Positions 40,120 to 46,229 of a stretch of 64,000 nucleotides of DNA are shown piece after piece (positions within the stretch are counted from its first letter, which is position 1; each line of letters starts with the position of its first letter). The DNA is taken from the NCBI GenBank assembly GCA_030529845.1, contig JAUMWB010000001.1, forward strand, positions 717,729 through 781,728. Reading direction: 5' to 3'. The notes below the pieces were generated by a model, which worked only from the letters and a program-made list of their open reading frames with translations, was not told the DNA's origin and did not search any database. The DNA is from Rothia sp. (in: high G+C Gram-positive bacteria) (GTDB lineage Bacteria > Actinomycetota > Actinomycetes > Actinomycetales > Micrococcaceae). A program made the translations under genes and the position numbers.

Positions 40120-40896
40120 TTACTCAGCGCGGACGGTGTTAATCAGGGAGCCGATGCCCTCTACCTCAATCTCGACCTCGTTGCCTGCACTCAGGCGTCC
40201 TACCCCTGCGGGGGTACCGGTGAGAATCACGTCACCGGGCAGCAGGGTGAAGTATTCACTGGCTGCGGCGACGAGTTCGGCCACGGAGAAAACCATGTCG
40301 GCGGTGGTGCCGTCCTGTTTGAGGTCGCCGTCCACCCAGGTTTGGATAGTCAGGTCGTCAGTGTCCAGCTCGGTTTCGATCCAGGGGCCGAGGGGGCAGG
40401 CGCCGTCGAAGCCCTTGGCGCGAGCCCACTGGACGTCAGTTTTCTGGGCGTCTCGAGCGGTCAGGTCGTTGGCGACGGTGAAGCCGTAGATAACTTCGGG
40501 CACGCGGTCCAGGGGCACGGACTTGGCGATGCGGCCGATGACGACGGCGAGTTCGCCCTCAAAGGAGACGTTGTCTGACCATTCGGGCAGGGCGATGGGG
40601 TCGCCGGGGCCGATGACGGAGGTGTTGGGCTTGAAGAAGAACTGGGGGGTGGTGGGGGTTTCGTTGCCCAGTTCGGACGCGTGGTCGCGCCAGTTGCGGG
40701 CCACACCAATGACCTTGGAGCGGGGAATGATGGGGGCCAGCAGGCGGACGTCCGCTAGGGGGTATCGCTTGTCGGTGGGGTTAATGCCGGTGTAGAAGGG
40801 GTCGCCGGAGAGGACAGTGATGGTCTCCTCGCCGGGCTCACCTTCAACCAGGCCAAAGTGCAGGGTATCGTCTACAGTAAATCGGGCAATGCGCAT
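40120..40896 (-). CDS. Fumarylacetoacetate hydrolase (FAH) family protein
   Basis: 258 aa. FAH fold with the metal ligands visible in SFEGELAVVIG (two Glu) and FTVANDLTARD (Asp), plus GVARNWRDHASELG and TGTPAGVG. Family members hydrolyse or decarboxylate acylpyruvates, oxaloacetate or catechol-cleavage products. In many actinobacteria this gene precedes gltX, as here, without an aromatic-degradation cluster, so a housekeeping acylpyruvase or oxaloacetate decarboxylase role is the best guess. Confidence 0.85.
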   Translation of the reverse strand: MRIARFTVDDTLHFGLVEGEPGEETITVLSGDPFYTGINPTDKRYPLADVRLLAPIIPRSKVIGVARNWRDHASELGNETPTTPQFFFKPNTSVIGPGDPIALPEWSDNVSFEGELAVVIGRIAKSVPLDRVPEVIYGFTVANDLTARDAQKTDVQWARAKGFDGACPLGPWIETELDTDDLTIQTWVDGDLKQDGTTADMVFSVAELVAAASEYFTLLPGDVILTGTPAGVGRLSAGNEVEIEVEGIGSLINTVRAE

Positions 40897-40930
40897 GGTT
40901 CTAGACTACCGGACTTGAGCACAAGGTTGA

Positions 40931-41018
40931 CCGCTTTTTGTAGGGACCAGATTCCTCTCAAATTCCTTCATCTCAATACATACAACCGTCACTTTTCTGG
41001 TCCATTCGCAAAAAGCGG
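40931..41018. repeat. Long imperfect inverted repeat upstream of the ABC-F promoter
   Basis: The left arm 40931-40951 (CCGCTTTTTG, 3 nt, GGACCAGA) pairs with the right arm 40996-41018 (TCTGGTCC, 5 nt, CAAAAAGCGG): 18 base pairs around an internal loop, with a 44-nt apical loop. It lies between the divergent FAH and ABC-F genes, 26 bp before the ABC-F -35. No open frame inside. Possibly a small RNA, an operator array, or a remnant of a small mobile element. Confidence 0.5.
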
Positions 41019-41044
41019 CAGCACTGGCTGAATTTCAGAAGTCG

Positions 41045-41074
41045 TTGACAGCGTCCGCACCGCTGTCCTACAGT
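41045..41074 (+). promoter_or_regulatory. Promoter of the ABC-F gene
   Basis: TTGACA (41045-41050), 18-bp spacer, TACAGT (41069-41074). A perfect -35 and a good -10. Transcription should begin near 41081, leaving a leader of about 110-125 nt. Confidence 0.75.
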
Positions 41075-41111
41075 AATCACCAGTTCTTGTTCCCTACGGA
41101 AGGCTCCCCCA

Positions 41112-41135
41112 GTGGATTTTTCAGCGGCTCTCTAG
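41112..41135 (+). CDS. Putative leader peptide of the ABC-F attenuator
   Basis: GTG start followed by six codons and TAG, peptide MDFSAAL. The ribosome-binding site GGAAGG (41098-41103) is eight bases upstream, better than any site at the main gene. Codons 3-5 (TTT TCA GCG) form segment 1 of the downstream attenuator, so a ribosome stalled here would block that segment. Too short to be found by ordinary gene callers; translation is inferred. Confidence 0.55.
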   Translation: MDFSAAL

Positions 41136-41190
41136 ACCACGCTGAAACCCCTCACCGCGGTTTTCAGCACATCAACTCTTTAACGCTGAA
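41119..41190 (+). promoter_or_regulatory. Translational attenuator with four alternately complementary segments
   Basis: Segments: 1 TTTCAGCG (41119-41126), 2 CGCTGAAA (41140-41147), 3 GGTTTTCAGC (41159-41168), 4 CGCTGAA (41184-41190). Pairing 1:2 (8 bp) leaves 3 to pair with 4 next to the main start; blocking 1 frees 2 to pair with 3 (about 9 bp), releasing 4. This is the logic of ermC-type induction. The pairing is seen directly; function is inferred. Confidence 0.6.
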
Positions 41191-41204
41191 TGGATCGCAC
41201 CCTC

Positions 41205-42896
41205 ATGCCTATTTCCGTATCTGAACCCCACCTTTCTTTTAACAGCCTCAGCCTGATCTGGCCCGACGGTACCCCCTGTTTTGAAAACCTCACCGGCGCT
41301 GTCAGTGCCCCGGTCACAGCTCTCATTGGCGATAACGGCTCCGGCAAATCAACCCTGCTCAAGCTTCTAGCTGGCACCCTAGAACCAACGAGCGGCAGCA
41401 TCAACCGGCCCGGTACCGTCGCCTACCTGCCCCAGGATTTAGGGCTTACCCCGCAGACCACCGTTGCCGACCTCTTCGCTATCACCGACGTCCTCGACGC
41501 CCTCACCGCGCTAGAAGCCGGCGACTACTCAGAAGAGCTCTACGACCGGATCGGTGATAACTGGGACGCCGCCGAGCAAGCCCAGGCTACCCTGGCCGCG
41601 TCCGGCTTCTCGCCCGCCCTAACCACTACCGACGCCCACGCCCTTATGCGGCGTACCGTCGGCACGCTCTCAGGTGGAGAGGCCGTCACCGCAGCCCTTA
41701 CAGCCCTAGTTGCCACCCGCCCCGGCGTCCTACTATTGGATGAGCCCACCAACAACCTCGACGCCGATGCCCGCGCTACTCTCTACCGGCTCCTAGATAC
41801 TCTGCCCTGCCCCGTGCTCGTGGTCAGTCACGATCGCGACCTGCTCGAGCGGGTCGATGAAGTGCTGGAACTCAGGCAGGGGGCCCTGCGCTTTTTCACC
41901 GGTAACTACAGCGCCTACCGGCAGGCCATCGACAGCGAGCAGGACGCTGCCGCCCGCCACCTGCGCGAGGCCAAGCAGGTTGAGCGGCAGGAAAACCGGG
42001 AGCGTATCGAGGCTGAAACCAAGCTGGCCCGCGCAGCCCGGGCTGGGGCGACCGCCCAGGCTAACCGGCGGGGCTCGCGTATGTCGATGGGGCTGGCGGC
42101 TTCCTCAGCCCAGCGGTCAGCCGCTAAGGTTCGGCAGACCCACCAGGGCAGGCTTGACGCTGCTACTGCAACCCGGAAGGCCCGGGAACGGGATATCCGC
42201 GAGGACCAGGCCATCTATCTTGACCTGCCCGGCACCCGGGTGCCAGCAGGTAAACGGGTGCTGGAGCTAACCCTACGGCAGGGCACCGGTGCGGACGCCA
42301 GCCCCTACCAGGGTGAGCAGAAGCAGGCGGATGACGGGGCGGCAGCAGCTACTCCCCTGCCTGAGCGGCTGATTGTCCAGGGCCCAGAGCGCCTGCGGCT
42401 GGCCGGGTCTAACGGGTCAGGTAAGAGCACCCTGCTGAGGGCCATCATGGGTGATTCTCAGGCTGCTGAAACCGCCCACTACACCTGCGACTACCGGGTA
42501 GCGAACACCGGCTACCTGCCCCAACGGCTAGCCCTCCCCCAGGACCAAAGCATGCTGCAGCTGGTCATGGCAGCCAACCCGACGCTGACCGAACAGCAGG
42601 TCCGCGATGATCTAGCCCGACTGCTCTTCCGCCGGGAACGGGTGCACCTGCCCGTGGGTGTTCTCTCCGGTGGCGAACGCTTCCGGGTGGCACTAGCAAC
42701 CGTCCTTTTGGCCAGCCCGGCACCCCAGCTGCTGATTCTCGATGAGCCCACCAACAACCTCGATATGACCTCGGTAGACTGGCTAATCCAGGCGCTGGCC
42801 TCCTATGAAGGTGCCCTCCTGGTCGTCAGTCACAACGAAGCCTTCTGCACGCAACTAGGCCTGACGGGCGTCCTGACACTGCCCGCCCTGACCTAA
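41205..42896 (+). CDS. ABC-F ATPase, probable ribosome-protection protein
   Basis: 563 aa from ATG 41205 (GGATCG seven bases upstream); ATG 41190 in the same frame is the alternative. Two ABC domains, no membrane part: Walker A GDNGSGKST and GSNGSGKST, signatures LSGGEAVT and LSGGERFR, Walker B VLLLDEPTNNLDAD and LLILDEPTNNLDM. The linker between them is helical and rich in Arg/Ala/Gln, as in ABC-F proteins that reach into the ribosomal peptidyl-transferase centre. The inducible-looking leader supports an antibiotic-resistance role (macrolide, lincosamide, streptogramin or pleuromutilin type), but the drug cannot be named. Confidence 0.85.
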   Translation: MPISVSEPHLSFNSLSLIWPDGTPCFENLTGAVSAPVTALIGDNGSGKSTLLKLLAGTLEPTSGSINRPGTVAYLPQDLGLTPQTTVADLFAITDVLDALTALEAGDYSEELYDRIGDNWDAAEQAQATLAASGFSPALTTTDAHALMRRTVGTLSGGEAVTAALTALVATRPGVLLLDEPTNNLDADARATLYRLLDTLPCPVLVVSHDRDLLERVDEVLELRQGALRFFTGNYSAYRQAIDSEQDAAARHLREAKQVERQENRERIEAETKLARAARAGATAQANRRGSRMSMGLAASSAQRSAAKVRQTHQGRLDAATATRKARERDIREDQAIYLDLPGTRVPAGKRVLELTLRQGTGADASPYQGEQKQADDGAAAATPLPERLIVQGPERLRLAGSNGSGKSTLLRAIMGDSQAAETAHYTCDYRVANTGYLPQRLALPQDQSMLQLVMAANPTLTEQQVRDDLARLLFRRERVHLPVGVLSGGERFRVALATVLLASPAPQLLILDEPTNNLDMTSVDWLIQALASYEGALLVVSHNEAFCTQLGLTGVLTLPALT

Positions 42897-42899
42897 CCA

Positions 42900-42971
42900 G
42901 CAAGGGGACCGCAAAACCAAAAAAGGACCGCATATTGTGCGGTCCTTTTTTGGAAATCTGGTCCCCTTGCA
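42900..42971. terminator. Nested bidirectional terminator between ABC-F and ilvE
   Basis: Inner perfect 14-bp stem (42919-42932 and 42938-42951) bounded by A6 and T6, a strong terminator in both directions. An outer inverted repeat, GCAAGGGGACC with GGTCCCCTTGC (42900-42910 and 42961-42971), wraps around it. Confidence 0.9.
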
Positions 42972-42991: not shown

Positions 42992-44089
42992 CTAGACCAG
43001 CTTGACGTTCCAGCCCAGGCGGTCTTCGACCTTACCGGTCTGAATACCAACCAGCTCCTCGCGCAGGGCCATGGTGACCTCGCCGCCGTCCGCACCTGAT
43101 GCCGAAGGAATCTCAAAGTCAGCGGCCTTGAGCTTACCCACGGGGGTAATGACGGCAGCGGTACCGCAGGCGAAAATCTCGGCAATCTCGCCGCTTGCTA
43201 CGCCCTCGCGCCACTCGCTCAGAGTAATCTTGCGTTCCTCAACGGTGTGGCCGCGGTCCTCAACCAGCTTGATGATGGACTTACGGGTTACACCGCGCAA
43301 AATAGTGCCGGTCAGCTCGGGGGTGACGATACGTCCGTCCTTGTAAACGAAGAAGACGTTCATGCCACCCAGCTCTTCGAGGGCGTCATCGCGGTTGGGG
43401 TCCTTGAAGATGACCTGCTTACAGCCCTGGGCCTCGCCCTCCAGCTGGGCAGCCAGAGAGGCCGCGTAGTTGCCGCCGCACTTCGCTTCCCCTGTACCAC
43501 CCACACCAGCGCGGGCGTAGGTGGTTGAAAGCCAGATATCGACGGGCTTGGGGGTGCCGAAGTAGTTACCGGCGGGGGATGCAATGATGAAGAAAGAGAC
43601 CTCGTGGGCCGGGCGGATACCCAAGAAAGCCTCGGTGGCAATCATGAAGGGGCGCAGGTAGAGGGATTCGCCCTCACCGGAGGGAACCCAGTCAGCGTCG
43701 ATAGTCACCAGCTGGCGAATCGCCTCAACGAAGAGCTCTTCGGGCAGGTTAGGCAGCACCAGGCGGTCTGCTGACTTATTCAGGCGGGAGGCGTTCTCTT
43801 CAGGGCGGAAGGTGGTGATGGATCCATCTGCCTGGCGGTAGGCCTTGATGCCTTCAAAGATTTCCTGGCCGTAGTGGAAAACGGAAGCCGCCGGGTCCAG
43901 GCTCAGAGGGCCGTAGGGCAGGACCTGGGCATTGGTCCATTCGCCGCCGTCGGTGTGGGTGCCGCGCCAGTCGATGCGCACCATGTGGTCGGTGAAGTAG
44001 TTGCCGAAGCCGGGGTCGGCGAGGATTTCGGCGCGTCGTTCGGCGCTGGCGGGGTTGGGGTTGCGGTTGATAGTGAATTCGAGTGACAT
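42992..44089 (-). CDS. ilvE: Branched-chain-amino-acid aminotransferase
   Basis: 365 aa from ATG 44087-44089, which has AAGGA five bases upstream; an ATG two codons earlier is too close to it. Fold-type IV PLP enzyme: HYGQEIFEGIKAYR near residue 75, YLRPFMIAT, the PLP lysine in EAKCGGNYAASL, EELGGMNVFFV, EIFACGTAAVITPV. Last step of Ile, Leu and Val synthesis. leuB follows upstream with 111 bp between, on the same strand. Confidence 0.95.
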   Translation of the reverse strand: MSLEFTINRNPNPASAERRAEILADPGFGNYFTDHMVRIDWRGTHTDGGEWTNAQVLPYGPLSLDPAASVFHYGQEIFEGIKAYRQADGSITTFRPEENASRLNKSADRLVLPNLPEELFVEAIRQLVTIDADWVPSGEGESLYLRPFMIATEAFLGIRPAHEVSFFIIASPAGNYFGTPKPVDIWLSTTYARAGVGGTGEAKCGGNYAASLAAQLEGEAQGCKQVIFKDPNRDDALEELGGMNVFFVYKDGRIVTPELTGTILRGVTRKSIIKLVEDRGHTVEERKITLSEWREGVASGEIAEIFACGTAAVITPVGKLKAADFEIPSASGADGGEVTMALREELVGIQTGKVEDRLGWNVKLV

Positions 44090-44164
44090 GCTCATCCTTC
44101 AAACTGTGTCGTGGGGTCTCTTATCTAGGGTACCCCAGGGTCTTTCGCTCTGTTAGCTAGCTTA

Positions 44165-45324: not shown

Positions 45325-45714
45325 TTAGGGTGTGAGGTGGTCGTTAGCCGGCAGTACCTCTACCGGTTTGTTGCCGGTGGGGGCTACTTCGAGGGTAGCG
45401 AGTTTATCCCCTACCAGATGGACAAGGACGAGCGCGTCCCCGTCCTTGGTGTTTGCAGCCAGGTAGGTGCGGGGCAGGTCCTGATTGATGGGCTCGCCCT
45501 GGTAAAGCAGGTTGTAGGTGAGGCAGGTGCCGCAGTCGCAGATCTGCTCTATCTGAGCTTCTTCAAGGGCAGCAATTGCTGCCTCACGTTCTGCTGTATT
45601 CAGTTCACGGTCGCTTGGGGTGTGGGGCTTGGCCAGGCTTAATACCGCCGCAAAGAACTCTTTTTCTTGTTTCATAGCCACACTATAAAACAACACGTCA
45701 GAAGAGCGTGTCAT
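45325..45714 (-). CDS. Uncharacterised acidic protein downstream of yafQ
   Basis: Up to 129 aa; an internal ATG (45673-45675) would give 116 aa. No family recognised. The sequence is acidic and has a CDCGTC motif near residue 59, followed by LTYNLLYQGEP and a beta-rich C-terminal half (GDALVLVHLVGDKLATLEVAP). The first frame overlaps the 3' end of yafQ by 17 bp, so it is cotranslated with the toxin-antitoxin pair. It may be a passenger gene or a third component. Confidence 0.6.
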   Translation of the reverse strand: MTRSSDVLFYSVAMKQEKEFFAAVLSLAKPHTPSDRELNTAEREAAIAALEEAQIEQICDCGTCLTYNLLYQGEPINQDLPRTYLAANTKDGDALVLVHLVGDKLATLEVAPTGNKPVEVLPANDHLTP

Positions 45715-45979
45715 GACTACCAGTGCGGGTTAGGACCAGAAGAAGTTCTTCTCGTTCTACCTTATAGATCAGTAACCAGTCGCCTTCAATGTGCAGTTCC
45801 CGGTAGCCCTTCCAGTTCCCTTTGAGCGCATGATCCTTATATTTAGTAGAGAGCACGTCACGGTCTTCAGCTAAAAGCGCTTCAACAGCCGTGGCGAGCT
45901 TTTCGGGCTTGTAGTGCTTTCGAAAGAGTACTTTGGCATCTCTTTTGAACTGACTGGTTCGGTGGATTTTAGTCAGCAT
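45698..45979 (-). CDS. yafQ: YafQ-family mRNA interferase toxin
   Basis: 93 aa, RelE superfamily. The catalytic set known from E. coli YafQ is aligned at the same positions: His50 (KDH), His63 and Asp67-Trp68 (ELHIEGDW), and His89 with C-terminal Phe93 (SHDTLF). It should cleave mRNA on the ribosome. It overlaps the antitoxin gene by 11 bp, and its own end is overlapped by the next gene. Confidence 0.9.
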   Translation of the reverse strand: MLTKIHRTSQFKRDAKVLFRKHYKPEKLATAVEALLAEDRDVLSTKYKDHALKGNWKGYRELHIEGDWLLIYKVEREELLLVLTRTGSHDTLF

Positions 45980-46229
45980 CAGTCAAATCAGCCATGAGAG
46001 CCTCAACCGATGTGAAGGTCTTTCCGTGCCGCTGCTCAGCTTCCTGGCGTGCTCGTACATTGAGAGGGTTCTCGCGGTGCGGAGTAAAGGGCAGACCGTT
46101 ATCAACCAGCGACTGCTTAAGGAACATATTCAGTGCAGTGCTGAGGTCGAGGCCGAGGTCGCTGTAGAGTTTTCGCACCTCTTCTTTTGTGGCACTATCG
46201 GTGCGGAAGGAAATTGTTGTATCAGTCAT
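45969..46229 (-). CDS. dinJ: RelB/DinJ-family antitoxin
   Basis: 86 aa. A ribbon-helix-helix N-terminus (DTTISFRTDSATKEEVRKLYSDLGLDLSTALNMFLKQ, cited here as residues 3-40) gives DNA binding and dimer formation; the C-terminal part (NVRARQEAEQRHGKTF onward) wraps the toxin. AGGAG lies just upstream of the ATG. First gene of the toxin-antitoxin operon; expected to repress it with YafQ. Confidence 0.88.
   Translation of the reverse strand: MTDTTISFRTDSATKEEVRKLYSDLGLDLSTALNMFLKQSLVDNGLPFTPHRENPLNVRARQEAEQRHGKTFTSVEALMADLTDAD

What the first reader, a model, noticed from the sequence alone, without database searches (positions are those of the whole stretch)
41045..41210. erm-like ribosome-stalling attenuator in front of an ABC-F gene
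Five parts are read directly: a TTGACA/TACAGT promoter; a 7-codon ORF (MDFSAAL) with a strong ribosome-binding site; segment 1 inside that ORF; segments 2, 3 and 4 complementary in the order 1:2, 2:3, 3:4 (also 1:4); and segment 4 ending at the possible start ATG 41190 and directly before the GGATCG that would serve ATG 41205. In the off state 1:2 and 3:4 form. If a drug stalls a ribosome on the leader ORF, segment 1 is masked, 2 pairs with 3 and the main start opens. This is the ermC logic, here for a putative ribosome-protection ABC-F. Known drug-induced ABC-F leaders mostly use transcription attenuation, and I know of none described with this peptide.
Basis: partly seen in the sequence, partly recalled or inferred. 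Interest (0 to 1): 0.85.

Follow-up and report, generated by a model that had tools for sequence, protein, structure and literature searches.

The report
Drug-sensing leader before ribosome-protection gene
A tiny seven-codon gene and a folding RNA sit in front of a probable ribosome-protection (ABC-F) gene in Rothia and most likely switch that gene on when an antibiotic stalls a ribosome; it looks like a purely translational variant of a switch already known from Streptomyces.

Summary
Confirmed: in a Rothia nasimurium-group genome an ABC-F gene (true start ATG 41205) is preceded by TTGACA-18-TACAGT, an SD-led seven-codon ORF (MDFSAAL, GTG 41112) and four mutually complementary segments, near-invariant in 10 of 10 close orthologues (own included) while upstream DNA differs. 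The protein falls in one clade (100/99) with ABC-Fs bearing the published are5sc (MLV) and tiaA (DDISG) uORFs, on which lincosamides, streptogramin A and pleuromutilins, not erythromycin, stall ribosomes. Short uORFs recur before this gene (67 of 115 loci; 19.6 expected). Best explanation: a translational attenuator. Idle RNA is closed (uORF pairs with the main RBS, 1:4, around hairpin 2:3); a ribosome stalled early on the uORF frees the RBS. The modelled opening is matched by at most 1 of 100 shuffles in 42 of 62 leaders and by none of 46 other window genes. Reclosing by a ribosome at the uORF stop (3:4) is strong in some relatives (18 of 47) but weak in the window's own group (1 of 9). No terminator found. 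New variant of a known kind; no experiment done.

The parts
41045..41074 (+). sigma-70-like promoter TTGACA-18-TACAGT; start of RNA inferred near 41081
   Evidence: mean identity 82% over 10 orthologues against 53% upstream
41098..41103 (+). Shine-Dalgarno GGAAGG of the leader ORF
   Evidence: sequence; block 41093-41104 has 11 of 12 columns invariant in 10 orthologues
41112..41135 (+). leader ORF MDFSAAL* (GTG start, TAG stop)
   Evidence: 22 of 24 columns invariant in 10 orthologues; relatives have other short uORFs near this place
41112..41126 (+). segment 1: uORF codons 1-5, pairs with 41184-41200 (15 pairs) or, in short transcripts, with segment 2
41140..41149 (+). segment 2, just after the uORF stop; pairs with segment 3
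   Evidence: 41136-41168 has 31 of 33 columns invariant
41159..41169 (+). segment 3, shared partner of segments 2 and 4
41184..41200 (+). segment 4 with main SD GGATCG (41192-41197); closed by segment 1 or 3
41205..42896 (+). ABC-F ATPase gene (563 aa), in the clade of ARE5-type ABC-Fs; start ATG 41205
   Evidence: two PF00005 stretches; NF000355 312.6 bits, cut-off 380; tree; ATG 41205 in 10 of 10

Best explanation
It is a uORF-based translational attenuator of an ARE5-type ABC-F gene. Idle RNA: codons 1-5 of the uORF pair with the main SD region (1:4) around hairpin 2:3, so translation is low. When a peptidyl-transferase-centre drug (most likely lincosamide, streptogramin A or pleuromutilin) halts a ribosome at or near the uORF start, the ribosome covers segment 1 and the main RBS is freed, so ABC-F is made and protects ribosomes. 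If the ribosome is not halted it runs to the stop next to segment 2 and covers it; segment 3 can then close segment 4 again. This last, reclosing step is well supported in some relatives and only weakly in the window's own group. Shown here: anatomy, conservation, recurrence of uORFs and of the modelled opening, protein kinship. Inferred: transcription start, ribosome footprint, inducing drugs, resistance function.
For: Leader near-invariant in 10 of 10 close orthologues (own included) while DNA upstream differs. Pair probabilities by ribosome position, RNA to 41230: free 1:4 0.94 and 2:3 0.92; P-site codons 4-5 2:3 0.98-0.99 (0.87 with RNA to 41250); codons 6-7 3:4 0.99-1.0. Cost of opening the main RBS falls from 9.6 to 5.0 kcal/mol on a codon-3 stall, a gap reached by 0 of 100 shuffles and by none of 46 other window genes. 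Over the 62 distinct assigned leaders the free-minus-stall gap is matched by at most 1 of 100 shuffles in 42 (25 of 37, 17 of 25). The stop-minus-stall gap passes in 18 of the 47 with 6 or more codons counted that way in the two calls (15 of 25, 3 of 22). For the 37 with footprint +13, or with a codon-1 stall: 0 of 40 shuffles in 20 and in 22 of 37. 67 of 115 loci have an SD-led short uORF, 19.6 expected. One clade with MLV- and DDISG-uORF ABC-Fs, 100/99, apart from 10 rows found with NF000171 and 2 own paralogues. [quoted passage not shown] In G016, where no close ABC-F was found, a uORF relic without SD remains at the same place.
Against: No expression or drug data for this genus. In the window the modelled opening is partial: main SD unpaired 0.22 free, 0.35-0.43 with a ribosome on codons 1-5, 0.16-0.20 on codons 6-7, while ATG 41205 itself goes 0.67, 0.40-0.42, 0.22-0.29; on codons 1-3 the model even prefers 3:4 (0.68) to 2:3 (0.31) when the RNA ends at 41230, and the reverse (2:3 0.63-0.69) when it ends at 41250. 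By opening cost codons 4-7 hardly differ (5.8-5.9); the stop-minus-stall gap is 0.8 kcal/mol, reached by 11 of 100 shuffles. Among the 9 distinct nasimurium-type leaders only L005 passes that test. 20 of 62 leaders fail the free-minus-stall test and 29 of 47 the stop-minus-stall test. Six leaders (L006, L020, L023, L024, L078, L104) have no uORF:RBS helix in the idle MFE. Formal covariation in 8 relatives is weak: 2:3 score reached by 24 of 500 shuffles, 3:4 by 411 of 500. 48 of 115 loci fail the automatic uORF rule. uORFs of the 63 loci were assigned by eye.
Confidence: 0.75

Rival explanations
1. Strict ermC-type attenuator: OFF = 1:2 + 3:4, ON = 2:3, induced by macrolides through a stalling peptide MDFSAAL.
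For: All four complementarities exist; with the RNA ending at 41200 the 1:2 + 3:4 form dominates at 0.70, so it may be an OFF form during transcription.
Against: With the RNA ending at 41190-41195 or at 41210 and beyond, 1:4 + 2:3 leads (0.65-0.72, then 0.91-0.94). The peptide is not kept in more distant relatives (MDSAAFIR, MDTVAL, MKIFS, MKTWFAFA, MWI). The two uORFs of kin that were toeprinted were not stalled by erythromycin.
Confidence: 0.13
2. Transcription attenuation, as published for are5sc and lmrC, with stall-dependent antitermination.
For: The published mode for are5sc and lmrC; five Rothia relatives (L013-L016, L018) have T-runs 76-83 nt before the matched start of the gene.
Against: No terminator-like site at 40890-41260; the only T-run of 5 or more between uORF start and gene lies inside the uORF; 11 of 63 assigned leaders have any such run.
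Confidence: 0.06
3. General translation-stress or amino-acid-starvation sensor (whiB7-like, recalled), not a drug-specific one.
For: The model opens for a ribosome halted on any early codon, so other causes of early stalling could induce.
Against: By eye no amino acid recurs as a shared run over the uORFs of the 63 assigned leaders; the gene is an ABC-F, not a metabolic gene.
Confidence: 0.08
4. Chance structure: a conserved uORF of other use (e.g. coupling) with incidental complementarity.
For: Short SD-led ORFs precede 12 of 47 window genes, the ABC-F included; formal covariation is weak.
Against: Conservation block, shuffle and gene controls, recurrence in relatives.
Confidence: 0.05

Closest known systems
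are5sc leader of Streptomyces coelicolor (uORF MLV; PMC12421871)
   Same: ARE5-type ABC-F downstream, very short uORF with a non-ATG start, early stall expected to open expression; 7 of 27 class-level loci here carry a TTG-start MLV uORF
   Different: the published mode is transcriptional, with terminator/antiterminator; here no terminator found and a closed main RBS; different peptide
tiaA leader of S. coelicolor (uORF MVGDDDISG; PMC12421871)
   Same: ARE5-type gene, one uORF, reporters pointing to translational control
   Different: different peptide; the authors' fold still had a terminator form
lmrC leader of S. lincolnensis (PMC8546547)
   Same: attenuator before an ARE5 gene that senses LSAP drugs, with a uORF
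   Different: transcription terminator; there uORF2 translation is needed to form the OFF structure
cplR leader of Clostridioides difficile (uORF MRI; PMC10201436)
   Same: SD of an ABC-F gene closed by a hairpin and opened by a stall on a uORF; translational attenuation reported as sufficient
   Different: not an ARE5 gene; a terminator adds to it
ermC leader (recalled, not tested here)
   Same: four-segment logic, translational
   Different: methyltransferase gene, longer sequence-specific stalling peptide, macrolide inducer, OFF = 1:2 + 3:4

Membership tests
ARE5 subfamily of ABC-F ATPases | two ABC_tran domains | tested here: met
   PF00005, two stretches
ARE5 subfamily of ABC-F ATPases | groups with Are5sc/TiaA-type proteins apart from ARE4-like and housekeeping ABC-Fs | tested here: met
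   37 rows in one clade 100/99, against 10 rows found with NF000171 (3 of them over its cut-off) and 2 own paralogues. The Are5sc- and TiaA-type rows are recognised by their uORFs, not by name; AAF groups and LmrC were not included
ARE5 subfamily of ABC-F ATPases | resistance to lincosamides, streptogramin A or pleuromutilins | not testable with these tools
   needs MICs; the best NCBIfam model NF000355 is below its cut-off (312.6 of 380), as in one MLV- and one DDISG-type relative (339.2 and 368)
uORF-mediated attenuator of ABC-F genes | conserved translatable short ORF before the gene | tested here: met
   10 of 10 orthologues, own included; other uORFs in relatives. That it is translated was not shown
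uORF-mediated attenuator of ABC-F genes | expression platform that closes RBS or terminates, relieved by a stalled ribosome | tested here: met
   by modelling only: 0 of 100 shuffles for the window, 42 of 62 leaders at most 1 of 100; in the window the SD opens only partly
uORF-mediated attenuator of ABC-F genes | induction by drug | not testable with these tools
   no expression data
Transcription attenuator (are5sc/lmrC type) | intrinsic terminator before the gene | tested here: not met
   0 terminator-like sites by a simple scan; no T-run of 5 between uORF stop and gene
ermC-type attenuator | OFF state 1:2 + 3:4 | tested here: inconclusive
   0.70 with the RNA ending at 41200, 0.06-0.07 with RNA to 41210 and 41220
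ermC-type attenuator | conserved drug-stalling peptide | tested here: not met
   peptide not kept outside the closest orthologues
Rfam families | match to a covariance model | tested here: not met
   no match at 40900-41300 at E up to 5, nor in 6 relatives up to 2

The most novel reading that the evidence does not exclude
Across Actinomycetes the ARE5-type genes share one ribosome-position switch in which the peptide does not matter: the uORF codons themselves serve as the anti-RBS (in Corynebacterium even the uORF start region pairs with the main start), idle RNA is closed, an early stall opens it, and in longer uORFs a completed reading closes it again. The sequences of uORF and RBS have turned over together in each genus. 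(Probability lowered from 0.45 after the full test: reclosing passes in only 18 of 47.)
Probability: 0.38. Interest if true: 0.65.

Novelty: new variant of a known kind. Interest (0 to 1): 0.5.

Why it matters
If true it extends the published ARE5 attenuators from Streptomyces to commensals and opportunists (Rothia; Corynebacterium, including plasmid pA505; further genera unnamed here), predicts which drugs switch the genes on, and predicts that the uORF works by its position and its pairing rather than by its peptide. That can be tested with reporters. It may help to explain inducible lincosamide or pleuromutilin tolerance in such organisms (inference).

Tried and rejected
alignments with minus-strand loci not yet turned; discarded and redone (whose output was cut); script error, redone; finished its main table, then stopped with an index error; the missing part was redone. 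In one search the ABC-F row used start 41190 out of register (gap 1.3) and is not the observed value; 4.5 uses 41205. The 37 leaders were picked, one per type by eye, after the profiles had been seen; to remove that bias I ran the other 25 of the 62, which confirmed the opening (17 of 25) and weakened the reclosing arm (3 of 22). Formal covariation on the 8-row alignment gave little; L022 and L028 are misaligned there in segment 2 and were left in. A whole-leader alignment of the nasimurium type with L011 and L021 did not line up segments 3-4, and the 19-row alignment was not used for counts. Rfam found no leader RNA. A uORF as evidence in itself was rejected (12 of 47 genes). Amino-acid attenuation was set aside because no residue run is shared. 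Papers: PMC12421871, section 7 read and passages; PMC10201436, PMC8546547, PMC6723617, PMC10219788 and PMC11109978, passages only; others search listings only; ermC and whiB7 logic recalled. In nine literature searches no listed title or abstract beginning describes this leader in Rothia, Corynebacterium or Arthrobacter; some searches listed only 20 of 27, 10 of 18 and 12 of 25 papers, and the library is open-licence papers only. The uORF list in the supplement of PMC12421871 could not be read and may contain some.

Full report
WHAT IS THERE. The window lies in a Rothia nasimurium-group genome: the ABC-F protein is 91-96% identical to eight records named R. nasimurium, R. endophytica, R. nasisuis or Candidatus R. 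avicola. The ABC-F gene (41205-42896, +) stands between a gene that looks like a fumarylacetoacetase-family hydrolase (40120-40896, -) and one that looks like ilvE (42992-44095, -) (ORFs; both names recalled, not searched). In front of it are a promoter-like site 41045-41074, a Shine-Dalgarno GGAAGG, the leader ORF MDFSAAL* (41112-41135) and segments 1-4. The main start is 41205: its ATG is in 10 of 10 orthologues, while 41190 is TTG in L005.

CONSERVATION. In 10 of 10 close orthologues (91-100% protein identity, own genome included; 35 genus genomes searched) the leader is near-invariant: SD block 11 of 12, uORF 22 of 24 and 41136-41168 31 of 33 columns invariant, while 40945-41040 has 53% mean identity and no invariant column. 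A DNA search of the 35 genomes finds the leader in these 10 and, as an 11th hit, a 30-base piece in G016 (90%, E 8.2e-5). G016 has the same neighbours (258-aa hydrolase, 368-aa ilvE-like protein, with another 118-aa ORF between) but no close ABC-F (best match E 1.2e-26); the piece reads GTG GAT TTT TCA GCT ACT CTC TAG, and by eye has no SD before it and no segments 2-4 after it. So where the gene is gone the leader seems to have decayed.

MODELLED SWITCH IN THE WINDOW. With a ribosome footprint that leaves RNA free from 16 nt after the first P-site base (RNA to 41230): idle RNA 1:4 0.94 and 2:3 0.92, SD unpaired 0.22; P-site on codons 1-3 a mixture (2:3 0.31, 3:4 0.68-0.69; with RNA to 41250 2:3 0.63-0.69), SD 0.35-0.37; codons 4-5 2:3 0.98-0.99 (0.87 to 41250), SD 0.42-0.43 (0.35); codons 6-7 3:4 0.99-1.0, SD 0.16-0.18. 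ATG 41205 is most open in the idle RNA (0.67), which speaks against a simple reading. The cost of opening the main RBS is 9.6 idle, 5.0 at codon 3, 5.8 at codons 4-5 and 5.9 at the last codon. The first gap (4.5) is reached by 0 of 100 shuffles; the last (0.8) by 11 of 100. Of 46 other window genes given the same geometry none reaches 4.5; the highest is 3.2 (all 47 rows: mean -0.16, sd 1.44). In growing RNA 1:2 holds to 41165, 1:2 and 2:3 share to 41185, 1:4 + 2:3 leads at 41190-41195 (0.65-0.72), 1:2 + 3:4 at 41200 (0.70), and 1:4 + 2:3 again from 41210 (0.91-0.94).

RELATIVES. I assigned uORFs by eye in 63 loci by start, SD and stop, not by pairing. Rothia (same genus): MDSAAFIR, MDSQTLSA, MDTVAL, MDSAPSA, MKSAFVSA(IS), MDSAPLLAIR, MDSAPLAPIG, MKSAPLR, MDLLPLSR. 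Corynebacterium (named): MKIFS, MKIRS, MKISA, MKIFA. Same family, unnamed: for example MLLVLAFA, MKTWFAFA, MKTVRTLR, MDSFLA. Same order, unnamed: for example MKI, MEL, MWI, MIKL, METSGTALTAR. 62 leaders are distinct. In 56 of 62 the idle MFE joins uORF and main RBS by at least 3 pairs, in 50 of 62 the stop state has a helix of at least 3 pairs onto the RBS (loose criteria without a null). The null is 100 dinucleotide shuffles per leader: 37 leaders, the other 25. Idle-minus-stall gap: at most 1 of 100 as high in 25 of 37 and 17 of 25, together 42 of 62. Stop-minus-stall gap, leaders with 6 or more codons: 15 of 25 and 3 of 22, together 18 of 47; of the 9 distinct nasimurium-type leaders only L005. 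For the 37, footprint +13: 0 of 40 in 20 of 37 and 9 of 25; codon-1 stall: 22 of 37 and 12 of 25. The rows are related, so these are not independent events. By eye two designs appear: leaders in which any ribosome on the uORF opens the RBS (most of 2-5 codons, but also MLLVLAFA types), and leaders in which a ribosome at the stop closes it again (for example L020: 14.2 idle, 5.8 stalled, 15.3 at stop; also L011, L019, L021, L024, L026, L075, L081). The window is nearer to the first.

UNBIASED COUNT. An automatic rule (2-12 codons, SD match of 4 or more, start within 150 nt of an automatically chosen gene start) finds a uORF in 67 of 115 loci against 19.6 expected from shuffles. Left out before the count: L002, L003, L007, L008, L031-L038, L040, L041, L043, L047, L050, L052 and L064-L072 (near-duplicates or the same places fetched again), L025 and L030 (fragment or paralogue), L053-L063 (unrelated hits). 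Some of the 48 misses have uORFs outside the rule: Corynebacterium uORFs without SD, MLV uORFs more than 150 nt upstream, MTHRA types.

COVARIATION. In 8 relatives (L019, L020, L022-L024, L026-L028; L022 and L028 misaligned in segment 2) helix 2:3 has 3 pairs changed on both sides, score reached by 24 of 500 shuffles; 3:4 has no excess, 411 of 500. One site is telling by eye: in L027 the U-A-U of segments 2, 3 and 4 became C-G-C, as expected if segment 3 pairs with both (alignment). In L021 the idle uORF:RBS helix has other letters on both sides (CTGTAGC/GCTACAG).

WHAT GENE IT IS. Two ABC_tran stretches; best NCBIfam model NF000355, 312.6 bits, under its cut-off 380. Of 27 class-level loci 7 carry a TTG-start MLV uORF and 3 M[A/V]G[D/E]DDISG, which match the published uORFs of are5sc (MLV, TTG start) and tiaA (MVGDDDISG) (PMC12421871). 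In a tree with 10 rows found with NF000171 and 2 own paralogues the 37 rows of this set that I gave, window included, form one clade, 100/99. [quoted passage not shown] With the footprint used here a codon-1 stall would cover segment 1 of the window (to 41127).

KNOWN OR NEW. uORF attenuation of ABC-F genes is a known kind, also in actinomycetes. What differs: no terminator found in the window, closing of the main RBS by the uORF itself, and the recurrence of this in Rothia, Corynebacterium and unnamed genera of the order. No listed title or abstract beginning in nine searches (three listings were capped) describes it in these genera; the supplement of PMC12421871 was not readable here. Hence: new variant of a known kind.

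LIMITS. No expression data, no drug data; energies are from a nearest-neighbour model at 37 C; the transcription start is inferred; opening in the window is partial and its reclosing arm weak.

Noticed in passing
L181 (G016:C54:22000-25200), minus strand about 1602-1632: Relic of the leader ORF at the same locus in a Rothia genome without a close ABC-F gene; by eye its SD and segments 2-4 are gone.
   Followed up: yes
L013-L016, L018 upstream of the ABC-F: Five Rothia relatives (mucilaginosa/dentocariosa-type, label recalled) have another leader (MTHRA or similar) and a T-run 76-83 nt before the matched gene start, suggesting transcription attenuation before the same gene family.
   Followed up: partly
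L039, L042, L044-L046, L049, L051 and L168: Corynebacterium uORFs (MKIFS, MKIRS, MKISA, MKIFA): 6 of 7 assigned have no SD and by eye start close to a -10-like box, so the uORF may be leaderless; in several its start region pairs with the main start region.
   Followed up: partly
L168 (C. jeikeium plasmid pA505): The ABC-F gene with an intact MKIRS leader lies on a plasmid near a recombinase gene.
   Followed up: partly
window 40931-41018: Long inverted repeat (CCGCTTTTT...AAAAAGCGG with inner GGACCAGA/TCTGGTCC) just upstream of the promoter; seen by eye in the alignment in 3 of 10 orthologues (L001, L002, L006); a second partial copy (84% over 64 bases) elsewhere in the genome.
   Followed up: partly
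window about 42918-42954: Terminator-like hairpin AAAAAAGGACCGCA/TGCGGTCCTTTTTT after the ABC-F gene (by eye).
   Followed up: no
window 45698-46229, minus strand: Two small genes that look like a RelB/RelE-type toxin-antitoxin pair (by eye, not searched).
   Followed up: no
L007 and L008, ABC-F gene: A TAG within the match and an open frame of 565 instead of 568 codons in two orthologues, probably a slightly earlier stop; place not checked.
   Followed up: no
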